DNA of 64,000 bases from Amylostereum areolatum (lineage: Eukaryota; Basidiomycota; Agaricomycetes; Russulales; Stereaceae): contig SAXG01000019.1 of NCBI GenBank assembly GCA_012932865.1, positions 558,001-622,000 of the forward strand. The letters are read 5' to 3'. Both the position numbers and the translations under genes were made by a program. Below the pieces are notes generated by a model that made no database searches, was not told where the DNA came from, and saw only the letters and a program-made list of their open reading frames with translations. This document shows, piece by piece, positions 34,001-64,000 of this stretch (position 1 is its first letter; every line of letters starts with the position of its first letter).

Positions 34001-34336
34001 ATTGCTGTGGAGGCCAAAGAGGGTGCGACACCCATGAAGGAAAGCGAGCAGCGACGGGCACAATTATGGTGGTCGCGTTTCTTCTTCTGCCTCTCCATTT
34101 CCATGACGCTTATACCTTTGCAATATCAATGCTCATGGGGGATCAATGCACAACGCGCGTTGTCGCTTCTGCTCAGTCCAGACTCGAAACACCGCCGCCG
34201 TTGGACCCTGCATGAACCCGATAATACCGCAGGAGCTATTAGTCCGATGGGCTTGGGCTAATAGTCTTAACCCAGTGTGGAACCGTGACGTCATGTACAA
34301 GTCAGGCAAACGAACGTTAACACGGAGCTCCGTGAC
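31011..34336. other. Long region with no recognisable gene
   Basis: Six-frame reading gives scattered open frames up to about 156 codons (31395-31865 on the minus strand) and 153 codons (33800-34261, plus), none with known motifs or convincing exon structure. The last 200 bases before 34337 end in CTCCGTGACA, which resembles the minus-strand start of gypsy LTRs in this window, so part of 33900-34337 may be a degenerate LTR. Otherwise I see nothing definite. Confidence 0.3.
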
Positions 34337-34337
34337 A

Positions 34338-36234
34338 GATCTACCCTCCGGTGCTCTAACACTCTCTCGCCTGGACATCCTGCAAGGGTGGATGCGAGAA
34401 AATCGTCAAAGGAATGCCGAGGAACGCACAGGGCGGGGCGCATTTGGATGGCGCTTGTGGAAGGCATCAATCATGTTGATAACCTTTGAGAGTGACGAAT
34501 GCGGGAGCCAGGTGTTTTCAGAGTCGGGATAGCCGGTCCACTTGACGAGGGTATTGTATGCCTTTCTGTTGCGGGTCGCTTTGAGTCGATGATGTCTTCC
34601 ACATTGTATTCTTCTTTGTCATCAATGAGTCAGGCGGTGGTTGTTCATAGTTTGGACCAGTGCCTTGTCTCCTTGTATGCGGTGAGCAACGAGGCATGGA
34701 AGACTGGATGTATTCGCCACGTCTTCGGCAGCTTCAAGCGGTAGTTGACTGGGCTGATGACGTCAATGATCTCGAAGTCCAAATTGTTTGGGCGAGCTTA
34801 GCTTTCGGTCTCATCGTCTTCAGATTCTTGCCTTCTAGCCATACTTTGTTCTCCGACGGCAAACTGTGTTGATTTGCTGACCCGGGTCGCCATTGGTATG
34901 CTTCATCAAGTCCGATGCGAGGGCGAGGCTGGTCTTGATCTCCTTGTTGAAAACACAGAGGGACCTTCAGTCATAAAGTGAACACAAAGTGACTGGCCGG
35001 GGATTGAACCCAGGACCTCCCATATTCTAGAAGGGTGCTCTAACCAACTGAGCTACCTGTCCGATAGTGGGGAACAGTTGGTAGTTGATATATAGGAATA
35101 TCACTGAGCTCTGATTGTGTGTAACAGGCCAGGGCTTAGCCTTATTTCAACACTCCTGTCGGACTTCTTCAAGTTGACGTAGGCGTTCTTCAACTGTAGG
35201 GACCTTTGAGGAGGGTTTACGGATGGGTACATCTTGGGGAGGAAACCGTAGAGGACTTCAAAGGAGCTTTTCCAGTAGCTGCATGGGTGTAAGAGTTGTG
35301 AGAAAACTCGAAGAAGGGCAACCACTTAACCCAGTCCATCTTGTCGGTAGTTGCAGAATACTCCAGGAACTGTTCGAGGTTCTGGTTTTCACGTTCATCT
35401 GGCCATCTGTCTGGGGGTGATACGCCGTGCTGAGAGCGACTTGATCCCGAGCTTCTCATGAGATGTACGCATCAACCCTGTCCAGCAAATTGGGGTCCAC
35501 GATCCGAGATGATCTTGTCTGCTAGACCATAGTGTCGATATACCTTGTCGAAGAGGATGTTAGCCGTGCCATTCTGGTGATCTTGTCGTGCATGGGGTGG
35601 TAACCACCATCTTGGTGAGGCGATCAACTACGACATTGACGGTGTTATAGCCTTTGCAGTCAGGGAGTTCGACAATGAAGTCGGGTGGAGATGACGCAAA
35701 TGGTTCGATCAGGTACTTGTTCGGGATCATGTCGATGTGGGGTCGGCTGCTCTGTGTCTTGATTGACTGACAGGTTGCACATCCTGCTACGAAGTCGCGG
35801 ACAAAGACAATTCTTGAAGTGACCAGGGTGTCCAGCCAGGGGCAATTCATGGTACATTGTGACAATGTCGCGTCGCAACTCGTCATCTGCGGGGACGTAT
35901 ACCGAACAGGACCAGGCCTCTTCGTAGTTCCATTCCTGGAGGTTCTTGACGAGCGTACATAGTCCGTTTCGTAAGTGGCGTCCAGAGCTTGAACACCTTG
36001 ATGTCCTTGTTTTGCAGTCCGGATACATCGTCGGAGTTCAACATCGCCGAGGGAGGTTAACTGCTCCTGGCCTCGTTGCGTTATCTGGAAGTATTTGGGG
36101 TCGAGCAGGACACGCTCCTTGTTTTCATTTTCAATCACGCCTTGTGTGACAGGTCGTCGAGACATTGGAGTCCGGGGATGGGATATTCCTGGTTTGTGAA
36201 TAAGCGAGAAGTAAATCATGAGGAAAGAGCCCAA
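34338..36234 (-). pseudogene. Gypsy family A-like pol fragment (integrase and chromodomain)
   Basis: This is minus-strand sequence collinear with family A: integrase HHCC region, [43 protein letters not shown] region, YGFLPKMYPSV, then (past a TRIM solo LTR) the chromodomain and its C-terminus. Many stops and frameshifts. The upstream part of the same element continues beyond a DNA transposon at 41585-41998. It has the same TRIM solo LTR at the same site as the family A copy at 50800, so the two share an ancestor that already carried it. Confidence 0.88.
34945..35152 (-). mobile_element. Solo LTR of the tRNA-bearing TRIM, TSD CTCCT
   Basis: The 208-bp segment has TGTTGAAA..TTTCAACA ends and a perfect duplication CTCCT (34940-34944 and 35153-35157). 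It contains a tRNA-like segment on the minus strand (about 34990-35062) with A box and B box. One base shorter than the copies at 59962 and 60256. Confidence 0.93.
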
Positions 36235-36455
36235 GGGGCCTGCTCAATTCTAACCACCCAGTGTTACACCAGTGTCTCCCCGCCCAGTTCTCCCTCGGGG
36301 TGGCGGGCCCTGTGATACCGAGAGGTCGAGGTGTGCGTGTGAGAAACAAGTAAACTACCATATTAAACCTAGATTAGGTTTAATACAAACGTTTCCGCTC
36401 GAATGATCACGTAGACCATACCGAGGAAGACGCGTCGCCGCGCGAGCCTTCGAGA
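36235..36455 (+). repeat. Left long TIR of the Harbinger-like element
   Basis: It is inverted relative to 41370-41584 with a few small indels. A short internal palindrome, TTAAACCTAGATTAGGTTTAA, sits at about 36362-36382. Confidence 0.85.
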
Positions 36456-45822: not shown

Positions 45823-46413
45823 ACCACCATCACGTCCCCCGCAGTCCCTCGTCCCCCCACTCCAAACTTCCCCCCAGGCGTCTTTCGAGACTACTGTCCT
45901 GAAGAGTACTACATCCTCACCTCGCAGCAGACTAAGGAATCCGTACGTTGGCAGCACAACGAACCAAACCGGCAACGTCAAGACTGGTACTTCGACGACC
46001 GCGACGAACAACCCTACGTTGAAAAATCGGATTTTGCCACTGCTGCGGACGTTCTACAGCGCTTCCTGAACCCTCCTCCTACCAACTCGCCCCCACCCCG
46101 TCGATGTACTGTAGTCGAAGTCCCAGAAGGGATCAACTACAACGACACAACTGGGAAGTGGTACACCTATAGACGGAACAAGAACGGAACCCCAGGATGA
46201 TCAGTAGTTGAGTGGCAGCCCACTTCGTTCAGTCCCATCCAAGATCACTGGTCGTGGCATCATAACCAGCAATTCCTCACCCCCGCCGACTTCCTTGTTG
46301 CAAAACAAGTTGAGGACGAAGTTGAAGAAGCAGAAGAACACCGATGAGAAACCCTACGCCGCCTTGATCAAGAAATCGCCCAATCCCTCACCGTCCCCCT
46401 TCCCTTCGACAAG
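45823..46413 (+). pseudogene. Family A pre-gag region (no ATG)
   Basis: After the ORF0 stop the same frame reads PTPNFPPGVFRDYCPEEYYI, DWYFDDRDEQPYVEKSDF, then GKWYTYRRNKNGTPG and a TGA near 46198. The following frame ends just before the Gag ATG at 46414. It corresponds to the family B segment around WYFNDEEGFPYVEQ. No initiator ATG is visible. Confidence 0.5.
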
Positions 46414-47440
46414 ATGGCCGATGCTGAACCCAAACCTGCCGTCTCCAAGCGGGAGATCGGCCCCAAGCCAAAGCCATTCAAAGGCAATAGACACAACACC
46501 CTCCGGTTCTCCCTTGAGCTCCATATGTTCCTGTGCATTAACAAGGATGTTTATACCACAGATGACGCCAAGATGATGCTCCTCCTCAGCTTGATGGAGG
46601 ACGACACAGCGAAAGCCTGGGCCATGCATTGCCGCATGGAGCTCTTCGACGATGAAGACAGGAAGGAAGATGCTGAAGCCCTCGGCCTCAAGCCCCCGAC
46701 GCTCCACTACAACTCCTACAAAGAGCTCTTCGAGAGGTTCGGTAAAGACTTTGTGCCCGTTGATCTGAAGATAGAGGCTCAGCGTAAGATCAACGAGCTC
46801 GCGATGACCACCTGGGACGTCACCGACTTTATCACCGAGTTTGAGATGCTGGCAACCATGTCGGGGTACGACGACGAGGCGCTAATCCACTTTTTCAAGA
46901 AGGGACTTCAGTGTGACCTTGGCAAGCAGGTGGCCCGGTCATACCCATTCCCTACCAACCTTGCAGAGTGGAAGGAGCGCACCCGCTGCATCAACCACCA
47001 ATGGCTTGAAGAGAACCCGGAGAGGAAGAGCAGTCAGTCCAAGGGGGCTGTCGCGCTCACCTCGAACGGTTCCACCAACAACTTCCTCGTCACGCCGAGT
47101 CGGCGCCTTCACCAACACCATGACCCACCCTGCGAAGCTGACAGATGATGAATGGGCCAAGATGATGCGTGAAGGCAAGTGTTTCATGTGTCGACAAGCT
47201 GGTCACGTCTCCCGCGACTGCCCCAACTGCGACTCGAGCGCGCAACGGGTGGGCGCAGTAGAGACTGGATCCAAGGCCCCTCCCCCGCCGACGAGCACGG
47301 CTCCGCCCACTGCGAAAGCGACCCCAGACCCGTCCAAGACCATCACCGCGATCACTCGCCAGCTGAAAGATCTGGACGCGGAAGGTAAGGAGCAGGCAGT
47401 GGCACTGTTGAAGGATATCCTGGAGTCGCAGGATTTTTGA
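46414..47440 (+). pseudogene. Family A Gag
   Basis: ATG at 46414 (MADAEPKPAVSKREIGPKPK). A retrotransposon capsid domain (LELHMFLCINKDVY; AWAMHCRMELFDDED; FGKDFVPVDLKIEAQRKINE; LIHFFKKGL) runs to a frameshift near 47095, after which the CCHC knuckle CFMCRQAGHVSRDC and an acidic C-terminus ending LESQDF complete it. The normal length of about 340 residues would be restored by one base, so it decayed recently. Confidence 0.85.
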
Positions 47441-47523
47441 AACACCCCCCAATCACGTTGTCTGGCGGAGGCAAAGGACTTATATCATCGGCATCTTAGA
47501 ATTGCTTCTCTGTACTATCATCT

Positions 47524-48519
47524 ATGACCTCATGTGAGCAATCATATCCATCGTGTGTGCACCTCTCTACCGTCACGAAGAACAGGCAGACACCCTCGAT
47601 AACGCTCAAGGTCAAAATGATTGGACGAGCGACAGGCCGACAAATTGATGCAGATGCACTACTTGACAGCGGTGCAGAAGGAATCATCATCAACCGAAGC
47701 TTCGCTGAATGCAAGAAGCTGACTACAGGAAACCTAGAAAACCCGTTCCCTGTGCGTAACGTGGACGGCACCGAAAATATCATGGGCTGGGTGCGTGATA
47801 CGACGACCCAGCAGATCCGGATATACTCGCAAGACTCAAAGGCATATCATAAGGAAGAAGCTGAGTTCTTCATCACCAACATCGGTAATCACAATATGAT
47901 CCTTGGAACAGACTGGCTCGATGAGCATAACCCCACCATAGACTGGCAGCAAGATTGTGTTGACATGCTTCGCTGCCCTCCCTCCTGCACCCTCTCCGAA
48001 CCGACCGTGACAAACCTTGCAACAAAACCGCAAATACCATCATCAATCCGATCACAGCGAAAGGTTCGAGTTGACGAGGCCCCTAAGGTACCTCTAGTCC
48101 CGGACGACCCCTTCCCAGAACCAGTGTATGTCTCCTGGGCCCCTATCCCTACGTATGTCATCCCCGCATGCAGGGTCAAAGGTGTTCGCATCCGCGCATT
48201 CCATCTCTCACCTCTACCTGCCCGGCTTTTCACTGAAGACAACGACGAACGACCCATGGTCTTCCAAGACTGGGAGATCAATGGCCTACATCGCGCTGGG
48301 ATCCTTCCTGAAGTTGACAGCCCTAACCCGGAGGCAGTACCAATCCACGCGGGCTTCACCAAGGCGCAAGAGCTTGCAGAGCACTCAAAGAAAATGCACG
48401 CCCGCAAACCTTTGAAGACTTGGTTCCCCCTCCATACCGCAACTTTGCACCTGTATTCGACAAGAAAACCTCTGAATGACTACCTGACCGGCGACCATGG
48501 AATCATGCCATTGATATGA
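47524..48519 (+). pseudogene. Family A protease and linker
   Basis: A retropepsin-type protease with active site LLDSGAEG (about residue 42), VRNVDGTE and ILGTDWLDEHNP. A long proline-rich linker leads to AGFTKAQELAEHS, after which a frameshift near 48430-48500 displaces the frame from RT. Starts 83 bases after the Gag stop in another frame. Confidence 0.85.
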
Positions 48520-49625
48520 AGGACGGCTTTGAACCCAAGCCCTGCAAGATCTATCCGCTCTCCCCCTCCGAGCAGATCGAGCTCAATACCTTCCTCAACG
48601 ACCACCTGAAGAAGGGCTACATCTGCCCATCGAAATCGTCGCATGCAAGTCCGTTCTTCTTCGTCAAAAAGAAGGATGGGAAGCTGCGGCCTGTACAGGA
48701 CTATCGAGAGCTGAACAAGGGTACCGTCAAGAACGAGTATCCCTTGCCGCTGATCTCAGAAATTGTCGACCGCCTCAAAGGTGCAAAGATCTTCTCCAGA
48801 TGGACGTCCGCTGGGGATACAACAATATCCGCATCAAGGAAGGCAACAAGTGGAAGGCTGCGTTCAGAACGAATCGTGGCTTCTTCGAACCTACAGTGAT
48901 GTGTTTTGGGCTTATGAACTCCCCCGCAATGTTCCAGGCAATGATGAACGAACTTTTCAAGGATCTTATCGACTCGGGCAAAGTCATCATCTACATGGAC
49001 AACATCCTCGTATTCACTCGAACTATGGAAGAACATTGCGCCATAGTATGACAGGTTCTCCAACACCTACAAGACAATGACCTGTTCCTTAAGCCGGAGA
49101 AATGCGTCTTCGAGCAGGACTCCGTTGAATACCTGGGACTCATTATCTCACACGACAAGATCACCATGGACCCCGTCAAGGTAGCTGGTATCCAGGACTG
49201 GCCGACCCTGGACGGTCAAGGACGTGCAATCCTTCCTCGGGTTTGGTAATTTCTACCGACACTTTATCAAGGACTTCTCAAAAATTGCACGACCTCTGTT
49301 TGACCTAACAAAGAAGGACTGCACATGGAATTGGTCGGCGGAATGCCAGACGGCATTTAACGTGCTTAAAGCTGTGTTCACCTCCTCCCCTGTCTTAGTT
49401 ATGCCTGATCCAAGGAAACCCTACCTCGTTGAGGTCGATGCCTCGGACTTCGCTACTGGGGGCATCCTTTCGCAGAGAGGCAACGACGGCCACTGGCATC
49501 CGGTGGCGTATCTGTCAAAGGCCCTATCAGAACCAGAACACAACTATGACATCTACGACAAGGAGCTACTTGCAATCATCCACGCGCTCGAAGCCTGGCG
49601 CCACTACCTCGAAGGCGCCCCCTAA
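48516..49625 (+). pseudogene. Family A reverse transcriptase and RNase H start
   Basis: RT motifs [20 protein letters not shown] and NEYPLPLI lead to a frameshift near 48797, then [31 protein letters not shown] and the polymerase box IIYMDNILVF (D to N in the second catalytic position) with a stop at 49049-49051. The connection domain ([19 protein letters not shown]) and RNase H ([31 protein letters not shown]) follow in further frames. Inactive. Confidence 0.9.
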
Positions 49626-50799
49626 CACCGTCAAAATCTGGACAGATCACAAGAGTCTGGAGCACTTCAAGACGGCGCAGAAGCTGAGCCATGGACAGGC
49701 ACGTTGGGCTCTGTTCCTCACTTGATTTCACTTCTTGCTCATTCACAAACCAGGAGTATCCCATCACCCGGACCCAATGCTTCGACAACCGGATTACAAG
49801 CACGGCATTGAAAATGACAACAAGGAGCGTGTCCTGCTCGACCCCAAATACTTCCAGATACACGCAACGAGGCCAGGAGCAGTAACCTCCCTCGGCGATG
49901 TTGAACTCCGACGATGTATCCGTGACTGCAAAACCAAGGACATCAAGGTTGTTCAAGCTCTGGACGCCATCTTACGAAACGGACTATGTACGCTCGTCAA
50001 GAACCTCCAGGAATGGAACTACGAAGAAGGCCTGGTCCTGTTCGGTATACGTCCCCGCAGATGACGAGTTGCGACGCGACATTGTCAAAATGTACCATGA
50101 ATTGCCCCTGGCTGGACACCCTGGTCACTTCAAGACTTGTCTTTGTCCGCGACTTCGTAGCAGGATGTGCAACCTGTCAGTCAATCAAGACACAGAGCAG
50201 CCGACCCCACATCGACATGATCCCGAACAAAGTACCTGATCGACCATTTGGCGTCATCTCCACCGACTTCATTGTCGAACTCCCTGACTGCAAAGGCTAT
50301 AACACCGTCAATGTCGTAGTTGATCGCCTCACCAAGATGGTGGTTACCACCCCATGCACGACAAAGATCACCAGCAATGGCACGGCTAACATCCTCTTCG
50401 ACAAGGTATATCGACACTATGGCTTAGCAGACAAGATCATCTCGGATCGTGGACCCCAATTTGCTGGACAGGTGATGCGTACACTCAATGAGAAGCTCGG
50501 GATCAAGTCCGCTCTCAGCACGGCGTATCACCCCCAGACAGATGGCCAGACTGAACGTGAAAACCAGAACCTCGAACAGTTCCTGCGAGTATTCTGCAAC
50601 TACCGACAAGATGACTGGGTGAAGTGGTTGCCCTTCTTCGAGTTTTCTCACAACTCTTACACCCATGCAGCTACTGGAAAAGCTCCCTTTGAAGTCCTCT
50701 ACGGTTTCCTCCCCAAGATGTACCCATCCGTAAACCCGTCCTCAAAGGTCCCTACAGTTGAAGAACGCCTACGTCAACTTGAAGAAGTCCGACAGGAGT
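49626..50799 (+). pseudogene. Family A RNase H end and integrase core
   Basis: RNase H end (IWTDHKSLEHFKTAQKL), then the integrase zinc domain (MYHELPLAGHPGH, CATCQ), the core with STDFIVELP, SDRGPQF and HPQTDGQTERENQN (D, D and E present), and YGFLPKMYPSV. A TRIM solo LTR interrupts at 50800. Frameshifts lie near 49620, 49730 and 50060. Confidence 0.88.
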
Positions 50800-51007
50800 G
50801 TTGAAATAAGGCTAAGCCCTGGCCTGTTGCACACAATCAGAGCTCAGTGATATCCTCTATATCAACTACCAACCTGTTCCCACTATCGGACAGGTAGCTC
50901 AGTTGGTTAGAGCACCCTTCTAGAATATGGGAGGTCCTGGGTTCAATCCCCGGCCAGTCCACTTTGTGTTTCACTTTATGACTGAAGGTCCCTCTGTGTT
51001 TTCAACA
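50800..51007 (+). mobile_element. Solo LTR of the tRNA-bearing TRIM, TSD AGGAG
   Basis: The 208-bp segment runs TGTTGAAATAAGG..GTTTTCAACA. The perfect duplication AGGAG lies at 50795-50799 and 51008-51012. The tRNA-like part is at 50888-50961. It occupies the same codon position as the inverted copy at 34945-35152. Confidence 0.93.
50888..50961 (+). ncRNA. tRNA-like Pol III promoter segment in TRIM LTR
   Basis: The 74-base segment can be folded as a cloverleaf. GGACAGG pairs CCAGTCC with one A-A mismatch, the D arm GCTC/GAGC is perfect, the anticodon stem has one T-T mismatch with loop CTAGAAT (AGA in the anticodon position), and the T arm is CTGGG/CCCGG. A box TAGCTCAGTTGG and B box GGTTCAATCC fit the Pol III consensus. 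The AGA triplet would imply serine, but the long variable arm of serine tRNA is missing, so I treat it as tRNA-derived, not a decoding tRNA. Confidence 0.7.
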
Positions 51008-51693
51008 AGGAGATCAAGACCAGCCTCGCCCTCGCATCGGACTTGATGAAGCACTACAATGGCGACACGGTCAGCAAATCAACACAGTTTGCCGTCGGAG
51101 ACAAAGTATGGCTAGAAGGCAAGAATCTGAAGACGATGAGACCGAAAGCTAAGCTCGCCGCCAAACAATTTGGACCCTTCGAGATCATTGACGTCATCAG
51201 CCCAGTCAACTACCGCTTGAAGCTGCCGAAGACGTGGCGAATACATCCAGTCTTCCATGCCTCGTTGCTCACCGCATACAAGGAGACAACGGCACATGGT
51301 CCAAACTATGAACAACCACCGCCTGACCTCATTGATGACAAAGAAGAATACAATGTGGAAGACATCATCGACTCAAAGCCGACCCGCAACAAGAAAGGCA
51401 TACAATACCTCGTCAAGTGGACCGGCTATCCCGACTCTGAAAACACCTGGCTCCCGCATTCGTCACTCTCAAAGGTTATCAACATGATTGATGCCTTCCA
51501 CAAGCGCCATCCAAATGCGCCCCGCCCTGTGCGTTCCCTCGGCATCTCCTTTGACGATTTTCTCGCATCCACCCTTGCAGATGACATCGCGCTCCAGGCG
51601 AAAGCGCGTCTTAAAGGGGGGGTAATGTCACGGATCGCTCCATTTCTCTCTTCGTTTGCAGACCTTGTACACGTGACGCGTCACGGCACATGA
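51008..51693 (+). pseudogene. Family A integrase C-terminus and chromodomain
   Basis: The GPY-like module ([34 protein letters not shown]) is followed by the chromodomain (IQYLVKWTGYPDSENTWLPH). The last codons run through the polypurine tract (AAAGGGGGGGTAA, about 51614-51625) into the LTR. Confidence 0.9.
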
Positions 51694-51959: not shown

Positions 51960-52332
51960 TGTTAGGGATTGGTCCAGCAACTGGCAGATCACCCAAGTCA
52001 CCCAAAGAGAGAGAGAGAAAAAGGATGGATTGGCAGGAGAGGGTCCAAGTCCAGGCGTAGGGCCGAAGCAGTACATGGGGAACGAAGAGGACGATCTAAG
52101 GAAAAGGGGCGCAGAGGAGAGCCTTATATATGTACAGGATCGATGATGTGAGAATGGTGCGAGCAGGAGAGAACAATAAGGAAAAGAAAGGGGGAGGATG
52201 TGGTCCAGAGCGATGATGTCATAGATGGAAAGATAAGAGGAGTCAGGCTGATGACGTCATGTGATGGGAAATGTAATCATGTGACTGAACACGATGCAAC
52301 GAAAAGGGAAAGGATTGAGGCGATCCGTGACA
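51960..52332 (-). repeat. Family B 3' LTR
   Basis: The 373-bp segment on the minus strand runs from TGTCACGGATCGCCTC to CCCTAACA. A minus-strand TATATAAGG lies at 52124-52132. It abuts the truncated family A LTR. Confidence 0.92.
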
Positions 52333-53779
52333 TTACCCCCTCTTTAAGGCGCGCTTTCGCCGGGAGCGCAAGTTCATCGTCCATTGTGGATGCAAGAAAT
52401 TCGGCCTGGGTCAGACCCAATGATTTTAGTGATCGCAGGGCATTGGGACGAAGGCGGTGGAACTCAGCGATAGCATCCTTGGCATGCGTTAATGCAGAGG
52501 CCGGTCTCCATTCGTTCTCAGAGTCGGGGTATCCAAGCCATTTGACGAGGTATTCAATGCCGTGTTTGTTGCGTGTGGGTCGTGAGTCGAGGATGGCTTC
52601 AATCTCGTACTCCTTGTCTTCATCAATCAGTTCTGGAGGCGGTTGAGTGAAGTTGGGGCCATGGGCATCCGTCTCTTTGTACGCTGAGAGAAGCGAGGCA
52701 TGAAAGACAGGGTGGATACGCCATTTAGGGGGGAGTTGAAGGCAGTAAGTCACTGGTCCGAGGACGTCAGTGATAGTGAATGGGCCGTGTCGTTTTGCTG
52801 CGAGCTTAGCTTTTGGACGTGTGGTCTTCAGGTTCTTACCATCCAGCCAGACTTTGTCATCAACTTCAAAACGCACTCCTTCCTGTGTCGAGTCGTGATT
52901 GTAGCGCTTCATCAGGTTGCGTGCCGTTTCAAGACTGGCCTGTGATTCCTTGCATATTTCTTCAAGGTGCTGGAAGTGTTCTTCGACGGCAAGGTTCTTG
53001 GAGATGGGGTTGACAGAGGGGATCATTGTCGGTAAGAAACCGTAAAGCAGCTCGAATGGGGCGCGACCTGTAGCTGAATGGACACGAATGTCGTGTGAAA
53101 ATTCAATGAAGGGGAGGTACTTCACCCAGTCGTCCTGCTGATAGTTGCAGAATGCCCGAAGGTACTGCTCGAACTCTTGGTTCGCCCGTTTGCTTTCACC
53201 ATCCGTTTGAGGGTGGTACGCTGTGCTCATCGAAGCCTTGATTCCGAGTTTGGCGCAAGTCTCCTGCATAACCTTGCTTGCATACTGTGGGCCGTGGTCG
53301 GAGATCATCTGTTTCCACAGCCCGTAGTGTCGCCACACGCCGTCCAGCAAGATGTCGACGGTGCCATTGCTGTCGATTTTTTTGGTGCACGGTGCAATGC
53401 AGATGGCCTCGGAGAGGCGGTCTACAATCATGCAGATAGCATCGTATCCGTCCGAGGGAGGCAGATCAGTAACAAAGTCGGTTGTGATCACCTCGAATGG
53501 GTGTTCTGGGACGGCGTTAGGGATCATGTCGACATGGGGGTGCTGGGGACGGTTCTTGGTCACTTGGCAAACAGCGCATCCTTCAACATAGTCGCGTACA
53601 AAGACCGACATCCCTGGCCACCAGTATTCTTGGCTGAGGAGTTCATACGTCTTGTGGCGACCTAGATGTCCTGCCATTGGTGAGTCGTGGAATGACTTGA
53701 CAATGTCACGACGTAGCTCGATGTCTGCAGGTACATAGACCTTCCCTCTGAACAGAATCATCCCGTCTTCCAGGTTCTA
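52277..53779 (-). pseudogene. Family B integrase with chromodomain
   Basis: The zinc domain (FHDSPMAGHLGRHKTYELLS; C..C in GCAVCQ), the core (ITTDFVTDLP; SDHGPQY; HPQTDGESKRANQE) and the C-terminal module with chromodomain (IEYLVKWLGYPDSENEWRPA) are uninterrupted for 494 codons. A single TAG at 53777-53779, where relatives have TGG, separates it from RT in the same frame. Chromodomain gypsy integrases usually direct insertion to histone-marked chromatin; that is family knowledge, not shown here. Confidence 0.92.
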
Positions 53780-55387
53780 TTCTTGAAGGTCCTTAACAAG
53801 CGATCGTGGCCCGTTGCGAAGGATAGCGTCCATGGCTTGTACAACTTCAGCGTCTTTGGTGCGCGCATCTCGGATGCATCGGCGTAGGTCAGCGCCGCCT
53901 ATGGTGGTTACAGTGCGCAACCGAGTAGTGCGGATACGGAAGTACTTGGGATCTAGGAGGACATGTTCCTTGTTGTCGTTCTCGACCCCCTCTTTAAGGT
54001 CAGGGTGTCTGGACAATGGATCTGGTCGATGGTGAAGGCCCGGCTTGTGCGTTAGTGTGAAATCGAAGCGCGTGAGGAATAACGCCCAGCGGGCCTGCTG
54101 ACGACTCAGCTTTTGTGCTTCCTTGAAGTACTCCAGGTTCTTGTGGTCTGTCCAAATCTCGACTGGATGAGTTGCGCCTTCCAGGTAGTGCCGCCAAGCT
54201 TCAAGTGCCCGAATAATTGCCAGCAGTTCCTTGTCGTAGATGTCGTAGTTGTGTTCCGGCTCAGTAAGCGACTTGGACAGGTAGGCAACAGGATAGAGAT
54301 GACCATCTTGGCTGCGTTGCGAGAGGATGCCTCCGGTTGCAAAGTCTGAGGCATCGACTTCTACCAAGTACGGTTTCGACGGGTCAGGGAGAATCAGGAC
54401 AGGGGATGAGGTGAACGCAGCTTTGAGGGCAGCGAAGGCGTCTTGACACTCTGCAGTCCAGTTCCATGGATGGTCCTTTTTGGTCAGTTCAAACAGGGGG
54501 CGTGCAACCTTGGAGAAGTCCTTGATGAAGCGACGGTAGAAGTTTCCAAACCCAAGGAATGACTGGACATCCTTGACATTACGAGGGGTGGGCCACTCCG
54601 TGATGCCTGCTACCTTGACAGGGTCCATAGCAATCTGGTCGTGTGAGATAATCATGCTGAGGTACTCGACAGAATCCTGTTCGAAGACACATTTCTCTGG
54701 CTTGAGGAAGAGGTCATTGTCCTTCAGGCGTTGCAGCACCTGCGTCATCAGTTCACGGTGTTCTTCGAGTGTCTCTGTGAAGACAAGGATGTCGTCCATG
54801 TAAATGGCGACCTTGCCACTGTCGATGAGATCCTTGAAAAGTTCATTCATCATTGCCTGGAATGTTGCAGGAGAATTCATAAGGCCAAAGAACATCACCA
54901 GAGGTTTGTACAGCCCGCGGTTCGTTTTGAAAGCGGCCTTCCACTCGTCTCCTTCCTTGATACGGACATTGTTGTATCCCCAGCGGACGTCCATCTTGGA
55001 GAAGACCTTGGCACCCTTGAGTTTGTCAACAAGCTCGGAGATGAGTGGGAGTGGGTATTCGTTCTTGACAGTGCCTTTATTCAATGCTCGATAGTCCTGT
55101 ACAGGACGAAGCTTCCCATCCTTTTTCTTGACAAAGAAGAAGGGACTCGCCATGGATGATTTCGACGGGCAAATGTACCCCTTCTTGACGTGTTCATCGA
55201 GGAAGCTGTCCAGCTCTTGCTGCTTGGATGGGGTCAAAGGATACACCTTGCAAGCCTTTGGTTGGAAGTCTGGTTTCAGGTCAATAGCATGGTCCCAGGG
55301 ACGTCGCTCAGGTAGATGTTCAGACGTAGCTTTGTCGAACACCGACTTGAATGAGCGATATTGCTCAGGGACCATATCTTCAAACAT
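53780..55387 (-). CDS. Family B reverse transcriptase and RNase H
   Basis: 536 codons are intact. RT has [58 protein letters not shown] and the catalytic YMDD box (VAIYMDDILVF), unlike the YMDN in families A and C. The thumb/connection has [19 protein letters not shown]. RNase H has [31 protein letters not shown] and EIWTDHKNLEYF. In the full-length element this would be the central part of one Pol polyprotein. Confidence 0.93.
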
Positions 55388-55474
55388 TTTCGTCTTGACA
55401 TCAGCTGCCTGTTCCGCAAGCTGTTGCGCCTTGGTGAAGGTGGCACGTATGACGAGGTTGTTGGACTATTCTTC

Positions 55475-56332
55475 TCATGCTAGTTGTTCAAGGGTGACTT
55501 CCTTTACGACTCCCACAGCACGTAGGCCGTCTTGGGTCCATGAAGCCAGGACAACGTCCGACTGCTCGTCGTCATCTTCTGTGAACCACTTTGCGCCTGA
55601 AGATGTACGGCGGGGAGGACGAACACGAGCATGCTGTACACGGCGGGCAGGGATCACGTACTTCGTGTTGCTTGGGTGGTTGATCACCGTGTGGACACGA
55701 GGTTCTTCGACTTTAACCTCGTCAGCTTCAACGACGTCAATGGGTGGTTGTGGCCCAGACCGATGTTCAGGTTTGATGCGAAGCTTCTTGACCGGAGGTT
55801 TGTGTAGGACGCAAGTGGGTGGGCAGCATGTCATGTTGACTTCTTCTCCATCCCAGTTGATTTCTGGGTTATGCTCCTTCAACCAGTCAGTTCCTAGGAT
55901 CATGTCGTGATCACCGATGTCCGTGACAAAGAATTCGGCTGTTTCTTCATGATACAATTCTGTGGATTGCGCGTAGATGCGAACACGCTGGGTAGTCGAA
56001 TGACGTACCCATCCTATTATGTTCTCCGTCCCATCTACATTCCGGACAGGGAACGGGCGGTCGAGGGTATCTAACGAGAGCCCTTTCTTCTCTGCAAATC
56101 TTCGGTTAATTGTAATGCCTTCAGCACCGCTATCCAGCAGCGCTTCAGCGTCAATTTTTCTTCCAGTGACTCGTCCAATCAGTTTGACATCCAGCAATAT
56201 TGAGGGCGTGTGCCTATTCTTCGTGACCGTTGACAATTTCAAGCAGGTTGGAAGGACACGCTCACTGGATTGCATGGATGATAGTACAGAGAAACAATTT
56301 GATGATGCCATAGAAAAACCTTTGCCACCCAC
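55475..56332 (-). pseudogene. Family B protease and linker
   Basis: Protease with LLDSGAEG, VRNVDGTE and ILGTDWLKEHNPEI. The proline-rich linker ends at a TGA (55475-55477), followed three codons later by a TAG; the same frame then continues into RT (AQQLAEQAADVKTKMFED). There is no ATG at 56332 (GTG); the gene overlaps no Gag codons and is in a different frame from Gag, so it would be made by recoding or re-initiation. Confidence 0.88.
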
Positions 56333-56355
56333 AGACGACGCGACTGGGGGATGTT

Positions 56356-57390
56356 CTAAAAATCCAAACCACCAGCGAGATCCTTCAACATCGCCGCGGC
56401 CTCCTCTCGCTCCTCCTTGCCCAACTTCTTCATCTTGTTGATCAGGACTGACATCTCCTTGACTGGATCCGCATTTGAGGTTGTTGCCGCTTGAGGGGAC
56501 GAGGGAGCATGCGTGGAGGGTACTCCTGAGTTTGAGTCAGTTTCCAACGCTCCTACATGTCTTCCACTGCTTGAGTCCTTGTTCGGGCAGTCACGCAGCA
56601 TGTGACCTGGTTGGTGACAGAGGAAACAACCACCTTCCTTGCGCAGGCGCTCGCGCTCAGCATCAGTGAGACGTCCTGGATGCCCTCCTTGGGTGCTGAC
56701 TGCTCCAACGCGCGGTACACTGCTGGTGGAGGATGAGGGTCGTGCGCTAGTGGTCGATGACGAGGTCTTCTGCTTCCGGTCTGCAGGCGATGCGAGCCGG
56801 CGGTTGCGGAGAAAGGCTTCATTGAGCGCACATGCACGAACCTTCCAGTCATCAATAGTGGTAGGGAGTGGCCAAGTCCTCTCGCATTCCTTGCAAAGGC
56901 CACTGTTCAATCCTTCTTTGAAGAAGTAGAGAACGGACTCGCCTTGGAATCCTGAGCGTGGGAGGAGGGACTCGAATTCGGTGATGTACTGCTGCACGGG
57001 GCGGTCGCCCTGCCTAAGGTCTGCAAGGGCATTCTGAGAGGTGATTGTCTCATCAAACTGCTTGAAGTCCTTGTCGAACTGGGCGAGGACCTCCTTGAGG
57101 ATGAGACACTTCGCACGAGTGGTCGTATTTGCTGGCTTGTTATCCTCGGCATCGAGGATCTCCTCCTGGTGCAGCTCTGCCCATATGCCGGCGACTGAGC
57201 CTTCCATCAGGGAAAGCATCAGCTGTATCTGGTCATCGTCGCTTGCGTACTTCTTGCTATTTGCCCTAAGGAACATGCGGACGGCATTTTTGAAGCAACG
57301 CGACTCTTTGCGATCGCCGGTGAATGGCTTAGGCTTAACGCCTATCTCGCCGGTGGAGGGGGTGGGGGTGGTCGAGGCTGGTTGAGACAT
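56356..57390 (-). CDS. Family B Gag
   Basis: ATG at 57390; 344 codons, intact. The N-terminal Ser/Thr/Pro segment is followed by the retrotransposon capsid domain (VRMFLRANSKKYASDDDQIQ; AGIWAELHQEEILD; FDKDFKQFDETI; SGFQGESVLYFFKEGL). The CCHC knuckle CFLCHQPGHMLRDC lies near residue 252, and the acidic tail ends AAAMLKDLAGGLDF. Usual length for a basidiomycete gypsy Gag. Confidence 0.93.
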   Translation of the reverse strand: MSQPASTTPTPSTGEIGVKPKPFTGDRKESRCFKNAVRMFLRANSKKYASDDDQIQLMLSLMEGSVAGIWAELHQEEILDAEDNKPANTTTRAKCLILKEVLAQFDKDFKQFDETITSQNALADLRQGDRPVQQYITEFESLLPRSGFQGESVLYFFKEGLNSGLCKECERTWPLPTTIDDWKVRACALNEAFLRNRRLASPADRKQKTSSSTTSARPSSSTSSVPRVGAVSTQGGHPGRLTDAERERLRKEGGCFLCHQPGHMLRDCPNKDSSSGRHVGALETDSNSGVPSTHAPSSPQAATTSNADPVKEMSVLINKMKKLGKEEREEAAAMLKDLAGGLDF

Positions 57391-58075
57391 AGTGGTTGCA
57401 GGCGGTTGAAATGGGGGAAGAGGGTTAACAGGAGTTGCAGGGGACTGATGGGGACTTTGAACGGCTGGAGAGCCTGGGGTAGAGGGGGGCAGGGGGACTG
57501 CGAGTGCGTTGCGGAGGGATGCAACACGTTCGTTGTGTGCAAGAGTGATCCTGTAGAATGCTTCTGCAGCGACCTCGAGTTCTTCGTCTAAGAGGAATGG
57601 TTTTTCACCTGTGGCCCAGGTCCAACGATCAACGTCTGTGTCGTAGAAGCTGGGATACCACTCTACGACTGCGCGTCCGTTCTTCTTGTAGATGTACCAC
57701 TTCTTTGTACGCTCGTCGAATCTGATACCAAGGGAAACAGACCAAGGCTGGTCTCGTCGCGGTGGAGGTGGAGGGGAGCCTTCTTCTTGAGGAGCAGTGG
57801 CAACTTCTTCTCGTTTGGGGGTCTGGGGGTTATAGATACGGTCGTGCTCCTGCGCCGCAACATCGATATCAGTCTGTTCGACGTAAGGGAAACCTTCCTC
57901 GTCGTTGAAGTACCACTGGGCAGTGACTCCGTCGACGTGTGTCCAGTGTACGGTTTGTCGTCCACCGAGGGTGAGGGCATAGTACTCGCCTGGGTTAGCT
58001 CCACGAGGGAAGCCGAGAGGGAAGTCTGGAGTGGTGGCACGGGGGGAGGATTCGGAAGCGATGGTGGTGTCTAGA
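57391..58075 (-). CDS. Family B pre-gag extension in frame with Gag (no ATG)
   Basis: Upstream of the Gag ATG the same frame stays open to about 58075. It encodes GEYYALTLGGRQTVHWTHVD, QWYFNDEEGFPYVEQ, SLGIRFDERTKKWYIYKK, AVVEWYPSFYDTDVDRWTWA and a proline-rich linker. The residues match the family A pre-gag, which argues for translation, yet there is no in-frame ATG. The frame lies at -1 relative to ORF0 at the ORF0 stop. Confidence 0.55.
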
Positions 58076-58640
58076 AAAAGTCCGCCGCGATGGGGCGACG
58101 GCCTAAGAGGCGAGCGGTGAGGTAGGAGGCCTTGAGAGCCTGGCGGATCTTGTGCTGATGACGACGCTGTTGCAGCTCCTTGCAGCTGGTGATTGTTCGA
58201 CGGAGTGGTGGTGGCGGAGTAGATTCGGGCGTAGGGAGGGCAAAGTTATAGACGGTGGGGAAGCTTTGACGGACGAGTGATGGTGGCAGATGGGTGTTGG
58301 AACAGGTGTGCCAGGTGGGGGAATGGATGGAAAACTCGAAGCGGTTCTGATCTATATCGAAGCGCACAACAACACGAGCGTAGAGGCAGAGGATCGTCTG
58401 CCTACCGTGACCGTGGTTCCAGCGCCACTCGTAAATGCGGCAGTTGACACCGTGGACTTTCCTGGTGTGCTCTTTGCAGAGGAGCTCGAGGGCGCGTAGG
58501 CGATTGACAGTGACAGCGTCTTCTCGAGGCCAAGGGAAGGGAGTGTCGCGGTTGGAGTTGAAGGTTTGGAGGTTGAATGCGATGAAGATCGGTTGATTGA
58601 GTGGTTCCAGGATGGGGGATTTAACGTCGTAAAGACGGCA
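58071..58640 (-). CDS. Family B ORF0 (no ATG)
   Basis: The frame is open from the PBS: CRLYDVKSPILEPLNQPIFI, FPWPREDAVTVN, NCRIYEWRWNHGHGRQTILC, PTPESTPPPPLRR, QHKIRQALKASYLTARLLGR and ADFF, then TAG in TTTTTCTAGA at about 58071-58080. It matches family A ORF0 residue by residue, but here the ATG that overlaps the family A PBS reads as TAG. About 190 residues, basic, function unknown. Confidence 0.55.
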   Translation of the reverse strand, partial: CRLYDVKSPILEPLNQPIFIAFNLQTFNSNRDTPFPWPREDAVTVNRLRALELLCKEHTRKVHGVNCRIYEWRWNHGHGRQTILCLYARVVVRFDIDQNRFEFSIHSPTWHTCSNTHLPPSLVRQSFPTVYNFALPTPESTPPPPLRRTITSCKELQQRRHQHKIRQALKASYLTARLLGRRPIAADFF

Positions 58641-59956: not shown

Positions 59957-59961
59957 CGAGT

Positions 59962-60170
59962 TGTTGAAAACACAGAGGGACCTTCAGTCATAAAGTGAAA
60001 CACAAAGTGGACTGGCCGGGGATTGAACCCAGGACCTCCCATATTCTAGAAGGGTGCTCTAACCAACTGAGCTACCTGTCCGATAGTGGGAACAGGTTGG
60101 TAGTTGATATAGAGAATATCACCGAGCTCTGATTGTGTGCAACAGGCCAGGGCTTAGCCTTATTTCAACA
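59962..60170 (-). repeat. TRIM LTR (3' on the minus strand)
   Basis: TGTTGAAA..TTTCAACA, 209 bp, identical by eye to 60256-60464. Confidence 0.93.
60008..60081 (-). ncRNA. tRNA-like segment in TRIM LTR
   Basis: Same 74-base cloverleaf-like unit as at 50888-50961, with the B box GGTTCAATCC and A box TAGCTCAGTTGG on the minus strand. Confidence 0.7.
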
Positions 60171-60255
60171 CACCCCCGTAAGACCAGGCCTGATGTGATC
60201 TTAGGCACTCGCCACTTGTGCCCAACAGTAATCATGAAGGCGGGTGCTGCTACCA
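60171..60255 (-). other. TRIM interior: PBS and PPT
   Basis: 85 bases. Minus-strand order: TGGTAGCAGCACCCG (PBS-like), about 55 bases of unique sequence, ACGGGGGTG (PPT-like). Confidence 0.75.
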
Positions 60256-60464
60256 TGTTGAAAACACAGAGGGACCTTCAGTCATAAAGTGAAACACAAA
60301 GTGGACTGGCCGGGGATTGAACCCAGGACCTCCCATATTCTAGAAGGGTGCTCTAACCAACTGAGCTACCTGTCCGATAGTGGGAACAGGTTGGTAGTTG
60401 ATATAGAGAATATCACCGAGCTCTGATTGTGTGCAACAGGCCAGGGCTTAGCCTTATTTCAACA
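60256..60464 (-). repeat. TRIM LTR (5' on the minus strand)
   Basis: 209 bp. Carries the second tRNA-like unit at 60302-60375. Confidence 0.93.
60302..60375 (-). ncRNA. tRNA-like segment in TRIM LTR
   Basis: Identical to 60008-60081. Transcription by Pol III from here would end at the TTTT just before the LTR border (minus-strand GTGTTTTCAACA), giving an RNA of about 115 bases. Confidence 0.7.
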
Positions 60465-60496
60465 CGAGTTGAAACAACATCAGAGGGGCTTATGTC

Positions 60497-60961
60497 TCAA
60501 AATATCCCTGCTAGACACTCGCGAGAAATATCCCACTGGATGTTGAAGGAGAGGTCGGTTAGGGATCGGTGGACAGATGTGGCCTGACCGTTTTCCTCAA
60601 GGGTGAACCACATGATAGCCGGAATGAACCTCCTATGGTTCATAGTGGGTGTGGTGGTGCCGGCTCTCAAAGGGACTTCATGCAATGGCATACGAGTGAA
60701 AGAGAGGAATGCGAAACAGTACTTCTCATCCAGAGTAGCATGTGCGCCATGAAGAAACCATTCTCGGTTTACGCTAGGATCGGTGGATACCAGACCACAC
60801 ACCACCTTCAGAGCGTAATTGAGACCAGCGAGGGGTTCGGCAGGTAGATTGAGTTTCGCAATGAGGATTCGAGCCAGACCATCCTTGGTGGGAAGAGGAG
60901 GAGGAAGCGTCGCAGGCTGTGGAGGCGCAACGACAAAAGCGACGGCCTTGGGGCTTGGCAC
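60497..60961 (-). CDS. Hypothetical protein, unknown
   Basis: A 154-codon frame with ATG at 60961 starts MPSPKAVAFVVAPPQPATLP and contains LARILIAKLNLPAEPLAGLN and SLTDLSFNIQWDISRECLAG. It reads like globular protein sequence, not a repeat, and may be one exon of a larger minus-strand gene whose other parts I cannot identify. It lies 33 bases from the TRIM duplication. No family recognised. Confidence 0.4.
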   Translation of the reverse strand: MPSPKAVAFVVAPPQPATLPPPLPTKDGLARILIAKLNLPAEPLAGLNYALKVVCGLVSTDPSVNREWFLHGAHATLDEKYCFAFLSFTRMPLHEVPLRAGTTTPTMNHRRFIPAIMWFTLEENGQATSVHRSLTDLSFNIQWDISRECLAGIF

Positions 60962-61229
60962 GAAGTTGGATAGGGAGTAGTAAGTGCGGAATATGCAAGG
61001 GCGAGGCGAACGGATGAAGGGGCGTTGCGTGCGCGCTTGATGTTGCGAAATGCGCGCCCTGGAGGATGGGGATGGCGTTGGGAGGCGACGGATGGGTCGT
61101 CTGACTTGAAACTCGAGGGCTGGGGCCTCTAGGGATGGTAGGAGAGGTGTGTAGAAGGACGAGGCGAGGGGGGTGCTGTGAGGCGAGATAAAAGCGATGG
61201 GTGTTGGCTAGAGCGCAGGGCCCATAACC
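60962..61229. other. Unassigned flank of the inverted repeat
   Basis: A purine-rich stretch with GGATGGG and GGCGA motifs. No gene seen. Confidence 0.3.
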
Positions 61230-63201
61230 TGTTGAAGTCGCAGTTGAAGGGGCTAGCCAACTAGCTAGGGACGCTCAGAACTGACACAAACAGTGGATTG
61301 CTGCAGCACAGAATGAGCGACTAAGAAACAAGACAGAAACGAGCAAAGGGCATACCTGCAGCACAGAATGAGCGACTGAGGAGGAGCAAACACGTGTGGC
61401 TGCAGGTAGAGGCCATGAAACGTGGGAGGAATCTCGGAATAAGCCGAGAATCGCCCTAAAGCGGTAACTAACTCGAAACTGAAGCTAGGGAAGCTAGCTC
61501 AGGCTGAACTACAGTAAGTACAGTACAATAGCGAACAGTGGGTGAAGTGGAGAGGGCATGTGGAGGGCATAGACGCGGAATGAGGCGATAAGAAGGTGAA
61601 TGGAGCGGAATAGAAGCGAATAGAAGGGCGATAGAATGGAACCTTTGAAAGGCCTAGAAATCAGACATAAATGAATATCTTCGGCAGAAGGTTTATTTTT
61701 CCTGTTTAGTTGATTTGAACAGAAACCCCATCCTCATGCCCACCTCGTCTGTCTGATCACAGTTGACTACCCAAGTGCATACATGGAGCCCCAAAGCTGG
61801 CAGTTGGTCGACTTTGTCGACAAAGTGTTGGCTTCCTGGGTGATAACAACTTAATTCCTGTAGCCAGCAGCAAAAGGCCCAACAATCCTCCTGAGCTTAT
61901 GAATCCATACCATAAGCCTGCCGTCCTTTCAATCTTCTTAGCTTTAAATTGATAAAAGTTAGGCTATTTCTCGGATTGGCGTCTGCCTGGCCAAGACTCA
62001 AGGGCAGATGCCCTGAACGCCGTAGTGGACCAAATGGTCAAGGATCTGCTTCAGTACAGCGCTGGTTTCAGCACAGCTGTTGAATGAACAGACAAAACTA
62101 TCATGGGCCACTTCAAGATTATCATCTCAGAGCTTTCGGAAGCCACAGAGTTACACTGTATGATTTTTGAACCTAGACAGGAAGGAGGCTCTCGGTAAGC
62201 CTCCGCCTCGCCCGCATTTCAACACGTGTGCAGGGAACCTTTCAAAAACCACGACCACATTCTTCACTGCCTGCGATTTCTGCTGTGCCAAGTTTCCAGT
62301 GAGCCTTGAGCTTATATTCTTTTTGGTCACTTATGGATATGAGGTCGGTTATTTCTTGCCTTTTCCCCCTCCGAGTCTAATAATCATTTAGTGGTTTATT
62401 TATCAACATTGACATTCGCCCAAGTACAAAGGCTCGGAAACATTTTGGTGGGAAAGCGAGGTGGTCAATGACCATCTACTCGCAATGGAGACCTTTTATT
62501 GTATGGTTCATTCCTGTGCAAGCATCTCGGGAATCTCGCATGCCCTTTGGAGATTATCCCATCGGATCTCAGCAGCTAATTGATGGACCGCTTACTACTG
62601 GATTTCGAGATATCATCCATGATCGATGGATACCTTCTGGATCTTTCCATTCCCCTCCAGGCCGTACGGGCTTGTCTAGGCCTGCTGGCTGGTACCCGAC
62701 AGGCGGCCATGAAGGGGCTCTTCCAGGCTTCGCCAGCGGAAGAAATTCCTGCTGAAGATATTCATTTATGTCTAATTTCTACGCCTTTATTCCATTCTAT
62801 CGCCCTTCTATTCGCTTCTATTCCGCTCCATTCACCTTCTTATCGCCTCATTCCGCGTCTATGCCCTCCACATGCCCTCTCCACTTCACCCACTGTTCGC
62901 TATTGTACTGTACTTACTGTAGTTCAGCCTGAGCTAGCTTCCCTAGCTTCAGTTTCGAGTTAGTTACCGCTTTTGGTCGATTCTCGGCTTATTCCGAGTT
63001 TCCTCCCACGCTCCATGGCCTCTACCTGCAGCCACACGTGTCTGCTCCTCCTCAGTCGCTCATTCTGTGCTGCAGGTATGCCCTTTGCTCGTTTCTGTCT
63101 TGTTTCTTAGTCGCTCATTCTGTGCTGCAGCAATCCACTGTTTGTGTCAGGTCTGAGCGTCCCTAGCTAGTTGGCTAGCCCCTTCAACTGCGACTTCAAC
63201 A
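61230..63201. mobile_element. Long inverted-repeat element (about 460-bp arms)
   Basis: The left arm 61230-61690 begins TGTTGAAGTCGCAG. The right arm 62745-63201 is its inverse, ending CTTCAACA. Each arm holds a direct repeat of CTGCAGCACAGAATGAGCGA. The 1.05-kb middle has no recognisable transposase. The right flank is gypsy family A protease sequence and the left flank is unrelated; neither a 5-bp nor an 8-bp duplication is seen. It could be a DNA transposon with long TIRs, or two LTR-like repeats in opposite orientation. Confidence 0.6.
61691..62744. other. Spacer of the inverted repeat
   Basis: No recognisable gene. The longest frames (62468-62755 and 62580-62963, plus) run into the right arm and overlap each other. 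Confidence 0.35.
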
Positions 63202-64000
63202 GTACGTGATACGACGACCCAGCGAGTCCGAGGAAGAAGCTGAGTTCATCATCACCAACATCGGTGACCATGACATGATCCTTGGAACAGACTGGCTCGA
63301 TGAGCACAACCCCACCATAGACTGGCAGCAAGATCACGTTGACATGCTCCGCTGCCCTCCCTCCTGCACCCTCTCTGAACCAACCATGATGAACCTTGCA
63401 ACAAAGCCGTGCAAGCCATCATCGACCCAACCGCAACAGAAGGTTCAAATCGATGAAGCCCCTAAGGCGCCTCCAGCCCTGGACAACCCTTTCCCAGAAC
63501 CAACCTATGTCTCCTGGGCTCCGATCCCTACGTATGTTATTCCCGCGCGCAGAGTTTAAGGTGTTCGCATCCGCACATTCCGTCACTCACCCCTACCCAT
63601 CCGGTGTTTCATGGAGGATGACAATGAACAACCCGTAGTCTTCTGAGACTGGGAGATCAATGGCCTACGCCGCGCTGGGATCCTCCCTGAAACTGACGAC
63701 CCTAATCCAGAGGCGGTGCCAATCCGTGCAAGCTTCACCAAAGCGCAAGAAATCACAGAGCACTCAAAGGAGAACACACACAAACCTTCGAGGACCTGGT
63801 TCCTACTCCGTATTGCGGTATTTGATAAGAAAACCTCTGAGCAACTGCCCGACCAATGACTATGGGATCACGCCATCAACATGAAAGAGGGCTTTGAACC
63901 CAAACCGTGCAAAATCTACCCTCTCTCTCCCTCCAAACAAGTCGAACTTGACACCTTCCTTGACGACTATCTGAAGAAGGGCTACATTCGCCCATCGAAA
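63202..64000 (+). pseudogene. Gypsy family A protease to RT fragment, runs off the window
   Basis: Starting within the protease (IITNIGDHDMILGTDWLDEH), it continues through the proline-rich linker (PEPTYVSWAPIPTYVIPARR) with a frameshift and stop near 63557, then AGFTKAQ-like residues and the start of RT ([28 protein letters not shown]). Close to 47790-48640 but not identical, so it is a separate copy. It is cut on the left by the inverted-repeat element. Confidence 0.88.

What the first reader, a model, noticed from the sequence alone, without database searches (positions are those of the whole stretch)
59962..60464. Mini LTR retrotransposon whose LTRs carry a tRNA-like Pol III promoter
Seen directly: two identical 209-bp LTRs, 5-bp duplication CGAGT, TGG-starting PBS, GGGGG PPT, only 85 bp of interior, and in each LTR a 74-base cloverleaf-like unit with consensus A box and B box plus a TTTT stop at the LTR end. 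Known: plant Cassandra TRIMs carry 5S rRNA promoter sequence in their LTRs. This looks like an independent, fungal, tRNA-based counterpart. It raises the questions of which polymerase makes the genomic RNA and whose enzymes move it. Identical LTRs point to recent activity.
Basis: partly seen in the sequence, partly recalled or inferred. Interest (0 to 1): 0.88.

Follow-up and report, generated by a model that had tools for sequence, protein, structure and literature searches.

The report
tRNA-promoter mini LTR retrotransposon (Helenus)
This is a real, recently active, gene-less retrotransposon of a wood-decay fungus that carries a tRNA-like promoter in its repeats; elements of this kind (Helenus) were described in 2024 and were reported from what is very probably this same fungus.

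Summary
Window 59962-60464 holds a 503-bp element on the minus strand: two identical 209-bp LTRs, an 85-bp interior, a 5-bp duplication, PBS, PPT, and a tRNA-like unit with A and B boxes in each LTR. The genome has 172 LTR starts and 54 PBS-bearing copies. Of 42 cleanly ended full copies, 38 have equal 5-bp flanks (34 different); 88 of 117 complete LTR rows are identical. The window copy has an uninterrupted counterpart site elsewhere. The PBS matches the host initiator tRNA-Met 3' end over 13 nt. So it is a TRIM moved in trans.

It is not a new kind: Kojima 2024 (PMC10886601) named tRNA-bearing TRIMs Helenus and lists Amylostereum areolatum as a host; this genome is almost certainly that species.

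Its setting looks less known: 45 of 54 copies lie within 50 kb of one Copia family, in nests mostly one per contig, and that Copia primes on the anticodon arm of the same tRNA whose 3' end the TRIM uses. Pol III transcription and the Copia partner are inferred, not shown.

The parts
59962..60464 (-). whole TRIM, 503 bp
60256..60464 (-). 5' LTR in element orientation, TGTTGAAA...TTTCAACA
59962..60170 (-). 3' LTR, identical to the 5' LTR
60171..60255 (-). interior, 85 bp; no open frame of 150 aa or more overlaps the element
60243..60255 (-). PBS TGGTAGCAGCACC, 13 nt complementary to the 3' end (with CCA) of host initiator tRNA-Met
60171..60179 (-). PPT ACGGGGGTG
   Evidence: sequence
60301..60375 (-). 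tRNA-like unit of the 5' LTR (A box 60357-60368, B box 60313-60323)
60007..60081 (-). tRNA-like unit of the 3' LTR (A box 60063-60074, B box 60019-60029)
60261..60264 (-). T4 in the 5' LTR, candidate leaky Pol III stop
59967..59970 (-). T4 in the 3' LTR, candidate Pol III stop
59957..59961 (.). target-site duplication CGAGT, left
60465..60469 (.). target-site duplication CGAGT, right
34945..35152 (-). solo LTR of the same family, 96%, flanks CTCCT
50799..51007 (+). solo LTR of the same family, 99%, flanks AGGAG (the same insertion in an inverted copy of the host repeat)
60885..61682 (-). fragment of Copia-A, the possible helper: LTR end, half-iMet PBS at 61229 and start of interior
62750..63202 (+). 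Copia-A LTR, about 97% to the C94 copy

Best explanation
It is a TRIM of the Helenus type: a non-autonomous LTR retrotransposon, almost certainly of Amylostereum areolatum. Shown: shared ends, PBS, PPT, 5-bp duplications, counterpart sites without the insert, many identical copies, no sizeable open frame. Inferred: (1) the tRNA-like unit in the 5' LTR recruits TFIIIC and Pol III and starts an RNA near LTR position 80-90; (2) some RNAs stop at T4 in the 5' LTR, others read through and end at the same T4 in the 3' LTR, giving about 0.4 kb of RNA with R of about 115-125 nt; (3) initiator tRNA-Met pairs by its 3' end with the PBS, and a reverse transcriptase supplied in trans by a Copia element copies it, the G-rich PPT priming the second strand; (4) the Copia integrase, reading the shared ends TGTTGAA...TTCAACA, inserts it with a 5-bp duplication, mostly in the Copia nests. 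The likeliest supplier is Copia-A.
For: 38 of 42 cleanly ended full copies have equal 5-bp flanks, 34 different. 88 of 117 complete LTR rows identical. 16 of 25 tested copies have an uninterrupted counterpart of the joined flanks, one of the 16 doubtful; the window copy has one at C76, 93%. PBS 13 nt to host iMet 3' end. Consensus A and B boxes and Rfam/ARAGORN tRNA calls. Copia-A shares terminal bases, 5-bp duplications and a similar PPT; 45 of 54 TRIM sites lie within 50 kb of a Copia-A RT match and 3 of 54 within 50 kb of Copia-B. The published kind has the same features.
Against: No RNA data. T4 stands before the PBS in the 5' LTR, and T4 alone is the stop at only 3 of 16 host tRNA loci. 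Copia-A shares no interior or longer LTR sequence with the TRIM and uses another part of the tRNA as PBS. Copia-B copies also have the CAACA end with the half-iMet PBS (5 of 82 junctions), so ends and PBS do not single out Copia-A. 4 of 42 clean copies lack equal flanks; at least one is a recombinant. TRIM insertions inside Copia-A (12 of 25) do not clearly exceed its 33% share of the stretches read.
Confidence: 0.82

Rival explanations
1. An ordinary Pol II-transcribed TRIM in which the tRNA-like unit is a passenger left by an old tRNA or SINE insertion into the LTR and plays no part in making genomic RNA.
For: The T4 before the PBS would cut Pol III genomic RNA short. The acceptor and anticodon stems look imperfect by eye and the unit is not a proper serine tRNA (sequence). 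Older copies carry changes in the B box too, such as T144C.
Against: A and B boxes are intact in the young copies, and Kojima 2024 reports conservation around these boxes over many Helenus families.
Confidence: 0.25
2. The helper is not Copia-A but another autonomous element that primes on the iMet 3' end and is missing from the assembly, has a shorter PBS match, or was not recognised here.
For: Published fungal Helenus with a 3'-iMet PBS are matched by Copia-39_PHord with the same PBS. Copia-A has a different PBS.
Against: Of 56 exact 13-nt PBS sites in the genome 54 are TRIM and 2 were not read. None of 54 non-TRIM 10-nt PBS sites (from the 100 listed of 118) lies 1-9 kb upstream of one of 80 Copia RT matches on the same strand. 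Gypsy elements were not tested in this way.
Confidence: 0.4
3. A tRNA gene that was hit by an unrelated repeat.
For: ARAGORN and Rfam call it a tRNA.
Against: Shared ends, 34 different duplications and counterpart sites without the insert. The Ser anticodon sits in a body without the long variable arm of this host's tRNA-Ser.
Confidence: 0.01

Closest known systems
Helenus TRIMs (Kojima 2024, PMC10886601)
   Same: Short non-coding LTR element with a tRNA-like A/B-box unit in each LTR, 5-bp duplications in fungi, PBS to tRNA-iMet (3' end in some fungal families), Copia as the suggested helper; A. areolatum named in the text as a host.
   Different: Nothing found that sets it apart; the consensus for A. 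areolatum could not be compared, and its nests and the two primer sites are not mentioned in the parts read (the word centromere does not occur).
Cassandra TRIMs of plants
   Same: TRIM with a Pol III promoter in the LTRs (PMC7215508, passages).
   Different: 5S rRNA-derived instead of tRNA-derived promoter; plant hosts.
tRNA-derived SINEs
   Same: tRNA-derived Pol III promoter in a short non-coding retroelement (as described in PMC10886601).
   Different: This element has LTRs, PBS, PPT and fixed 5-bp duplications.
Centromeric Copia GlCEN427 of Ganoderma leucocontextum (PMC10817607, passages)
   Same: A Copia with a roughly 0.43-kb LTR confined to one region per chromosome resembles Copia-A here.
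   Different: Autonomous element; sequences not compared; centromere status of the nests here is untested.

Membership tests
TRIM | under 1000 bp, two LTRs, PBS and PPT, no protein coding | tested here: met
   503 bp; no frame of 150 aa or more overlaps it
Helenus | tRNA-derived sequence inside both LTRs | tested here: met
Helenus | 5-bp target-site duplications (fungal Helenus) | tested here: met
   38 of 42 clean full copies
Helenus | PBS complementary to a host tRNA, iMet in most fungal families | tested here: met
   13 nt to the host iMet 3' end
Helenus | same family as the published A. areolatum consensus | not testable with these tools
Helenus / TRIMp3 | transcribed by RNA polymerase III | not testable with these tools
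   No RNA data; boxes present, only a T4 run as stop
Cassandra | 5S rRNA-derived sequence in the LTRs | tested here: not met
   Rfam scan of the window at gathering scores finds only tRNA
internal-deletion derivative of Copia-A | shared LTR or interior sequence and the same PBS | tested here: not met
   Apart from the terminal bases, the PPT-like G run and a 15-nt match that is the TRIM sequence flanking the Copia copy, only weak matches; PBS on another part of the tRNA

The most novel reading that the evidence does not exclude
The TRIM is a niche parasite of one centromere-like Copia: it borrows Copia-A's enzymes and target compartment but primes on the other end of the same initiator tRNA (3' end instead of anticodon arm), so that one packaged tRNA serves two primer sites, while its own RNA is made by Pol III instead of Pol II.
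Probability: 0.3. Interest if true: 0.55.

Novelty: already known. Interest (0 to 1): 0.3.

Why it matters
A whole-genome census shows that a published but experimentally untested class of tRNA-promoter TRIMs is mobile and recently active as one nearly uniform young family in a mushroom-forming fungus. That makes the open questions, which polymerase makes Helenus RNA and which autonomous element moves it, testable. It also warns annotators: the genome has 167 tRNA-like 5' halves of this type, while 457 tRNA genes were reported for the published A. areolatum assembly, so a good part of such counts may be LTR-borne (inference; the published list was not compared).

Tried and rejected
Rejected: a tRNA gene hit by a repeat (shared ends, counterpart sites). 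Rejected: a functional tRNA-Ser; the Ser-AGA genes L062, L067, L069 and L070 have a long variable arm. Rejected as a sign of Pol III termination: a junction exactly after TTTT at C32:63123/63124 is a TRIM nested in a TRIM with duplication GTTTT. Rejected: that mirrored copies about 8.6 kb apart mark the ends of a large DNA transposon; the flanks show nested insertions and duplicated segments. Two LTR-PBS pattern hits (C94:408202, C143:112919) have no LTR and are one unrelated repeated sequence. Led nowhere: 5.8S search (no match); homologues of a gag-like frame (none); the progenitor of the tRNA-like unit (best score among 19 host tRNAs is a tRNA-Ile-AAT, 55 of 79 columns; many isotypes were not compared); selection on the boxes (older copies too few).

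Dropped before counts: one search used the 80 best of the 130 RVT_2 matches (151.5 bits and more) and grouped Copia families by score band, not by tree; it used 54 of the 56 PBS sites (C117:151468 and C158:3113 were not read) and 54 non-TRIM sites from the 100 listed of 118. Its random placement ignored contig borders and duplicated segments. One search tested 25 copies with 45-base flanks in the merged stretches, not those in L071-L089. In one search L066 (a TRIM) and L057, L059, L060 (AT-rich, mitochondrion-like by my judgement) were left out of the 16 terminator loci; some of the 16 are duplicates (such as L052 and L054).

Full report
WHAT IS THERE. The window's minus strand at 60464-59962 carries a 503-bp LTR element: 209-bp LTR, 85-bp interior, identical 209-bp LTR. 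Its ends are TGTTGAAA...TTTCAACA, flanked by CGAGT on both sides. The interior begins with TGGTAGCAGCACC and ends with ACGGGGGTG. Each LTR holds a tRNA-like unit at LTR 90-162, scored 56.1 bits by Rfam tRNA (gathering 29) and called tRNA-Ser(AGA) by ARAGORN. A box TAGCTCAGTTGG (LTR 97-108) and B box GGTTCAATCCC (142-152) fit the textbook consensus (recalled). The tRNA-Ser(AGA) genes read from this host are 82-83 nt long with a long variable arm; this unit is 75 nt without it, so it is tRNA-like and not a proper serine tRNA. Its fold is not more stable than shuffles (z -1.16).

IT IS MOBILE AND YOUNG. The own-genome search gave 78 LTR matches, with 40 of 118 candidates scored. Whole-genome pattern counts give 172 LTR starts (up to 3 mismatches; reversed control 1), 167 tRNA-like 5' halves (up to 3 mismatches; control 0) and 56 exact 13-nt PBS sites (control 1); 54 of the 56 were read and are TRIM, 2 were not read. 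With up to two LTRs for each of the 54, a good many of the 172 must be solo or unpaired LTRs. In the stretches read, 51 PBS sites had room for both flanks and an exact interior start; 42 have clean outer ends; 38 of these 42 have equal 5-bp flanks, 34 different ones. Of the four exceptions, the copy at C56:506669 has one flank of the C56:491535 copy and one of the C56:515351 copy, so it is a recombinant. 88 of 117 complete LTR rows are identical to the window's LTR; 11 more differ only by C89T, a second young subfamily; most other variants carry T56C, many with G48A. Identity could also be kept by gene conversion within nests, but the 34 different duplications show many separate insertions.

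COUNTERPART SITES. For 25 copies the two 45-base flanks were joined in a script; 16 met the criterion for an uninterrupted counterpart in the stretches read, at 86-100% identity, one of them (C32:63124, inside a TRIM LTR) doubtful. These are other copies of the repeat that was hit, not alleles. The window copy's counterpart is C76:863841-863924, 93% across the junction. 12 of the 25 (11 different points) lie inside Copia-A.

PRIMER. Four host initiator tRNA-Met loci were read (L051-L054; L052 and L054 have the same flanks); they end in ...GAGGTGCTGCTA. With CCA added, the PBS is complementary over 13 nt without a break.

THE CO-RESIDENT COPIA. A Copia family, here Copia-A, lies in the same nests: LTR about 451-455 bp, TGTTGAAG...CTTCAACA, 5-bp duplications, PPT CACGGGGGAG. 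In two copies its PBS GGTTATGGGCCCTGCGC is complementary over 17 nt to the anticodon arm of the same iMet; the C94 copy has one change. Copia-A has inserted into TRIM LTRs (C139 as a solo LTR, C94, and by its first bases C148 in L083), and TRIMs into Copia-A. In the window a Copia-A fragment begins about 420 bp from the TRIM (60885-61682) and another Copia-A LTR lies at 62750-63202. 45 of 54 TRIM sites lie within 50 kb of a Copia-A RT match and 3 of 54 within 50 kb of the Copia-B band; 36 of 49 Copia-A and 2 of 17 Copia-B matches have a TRIM within 50 kb; 49 of 54 TRIMs have a TRIM neighbour within 50 kb against a random mean of 4.8 (maximum 18 in 2000 draws). TRIM or Copia-A sites occur on 25 contigs; 6 have one site; of the other 19, 18 span less than 110 kb and C76 spans 229 kb. 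Some of these contigs are short, so they could not show more. This suggests centromeres or other heterochromatin (inference). A centromeric Copia with a 427-bp LTR is published for Ganoderma leucocontextum (PMC10817607, passages). The window itself is full of Gypsy and Copia pieces, three of them with chromodomains.

RESULTS AGAINST A SIMPLE STORY. TRIMs inside Copia-A (12 of 25) do not clearly exceed its 33% share of the stretches read. The junction pattern CAACA+half-iMet PBS (82 sites, control 0) is not specific to Copia-A: 36 lie upstream of Copia-A-band RT matches, 5 of Copia-B, 4 of others, 37 of none of the 80 rows used. Apart from chance-level matches, TRIM and Copia-A share only end bases and the G-rich PPT.

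HOW IT PROBABLY WORKS. With no sizeable open frame, proteins must come in trans. Shared end bases, 5-bp duplications, PPT and nests point to a Copia, best to Copia-A; the PBS does not. Either the supplier's reverse transcriptase accepts the iMet 3' end although Copia-A itself primes on the arm, or the true partner was not recognised or is missing. Pol III is plausible from the boxes. T4 at LTR 201-204 is the only run of four or more T in LTR and interior. Of 16 nuclear-type host tRNA loci, 13 have T5 or longer within 45 nt, 3 have T4 only, and in 5 the first run of four or more is T4. So T4 is a plausible leaky stop, and leakiness is what the 5' LTR needs for full-length RNA. All of this is inference without RNA data.

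WHAT IS KNOWN. Kojima 2024 (PMC10886601; [quoted passage not shown] The text names Amylostereum areolatum as a host; Table 1 as held does not list it. The genome here is almost certainly that species: contig C1 has 3,099,494 bases, exactly the maximum scaffold length published for A. areolatum (PMC7227769, passages); total 57.13 against 57.57 Mb, 182 contigs against 248 scaffolds; and a frame beside the element is 98% identical over 55% of its length to an A. chailletii protein, the only hit. So the kind, and probably the family, is known; the published consensus could not be compared. Paper searches for Helenus, TRIMp3 and Amylostereum with LTR listed no second paper on Helenus elements; I saw only listings there, and the library lacks most subscription journals.

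VERDICT. A correct and sharp observation, known in kind since 2024. What remains of interest is the young uniform burst, the nests shared with one Copia, and two primer sites on one tRNA.

Noticed in passing
window 34283-36242 and 49696-51686: Two inverted copies (94% over about 2 kb) of a chromodomain Gypsy stretch carry the same solo TRIM LTR at the same point with mirrored flanks, so a Gypsy copy or segment was duplicated after the TRIM hit its pol frame.
   Followed up: partly
window 7785-10988, 14572-18576, 46348-51693, 52277-58245: Nested Copia and chromodomain Gypsy pieces fill much of the window.
   Followed up: partly
G000 C41:8100-19757, C148:185243-197255, C85:71284-79841: Copia RT matches recur at regular spacing (about 3.7, 4.0 and 4.3 kb), which suggests tandem LTR-interior arrays or assembly repeats.
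   Followed up: no
L074 (C96:474115-474665): Two TRIM interiors face each other with a shortened LTR between them, a head-to-head rearranged copy.
   Followed up: no
window 60500-60886: Frame with no Pfam family, 98% identical to an A. chailletii hypothetical protein; high identity between species hints at a mobile element or strong constraint.
   Followed up: partly
whole genome: 457 tRNA genes were reported for the published A. areolatum assembly; up to 167 could be TRIM LTR units.
   Followed up: partly
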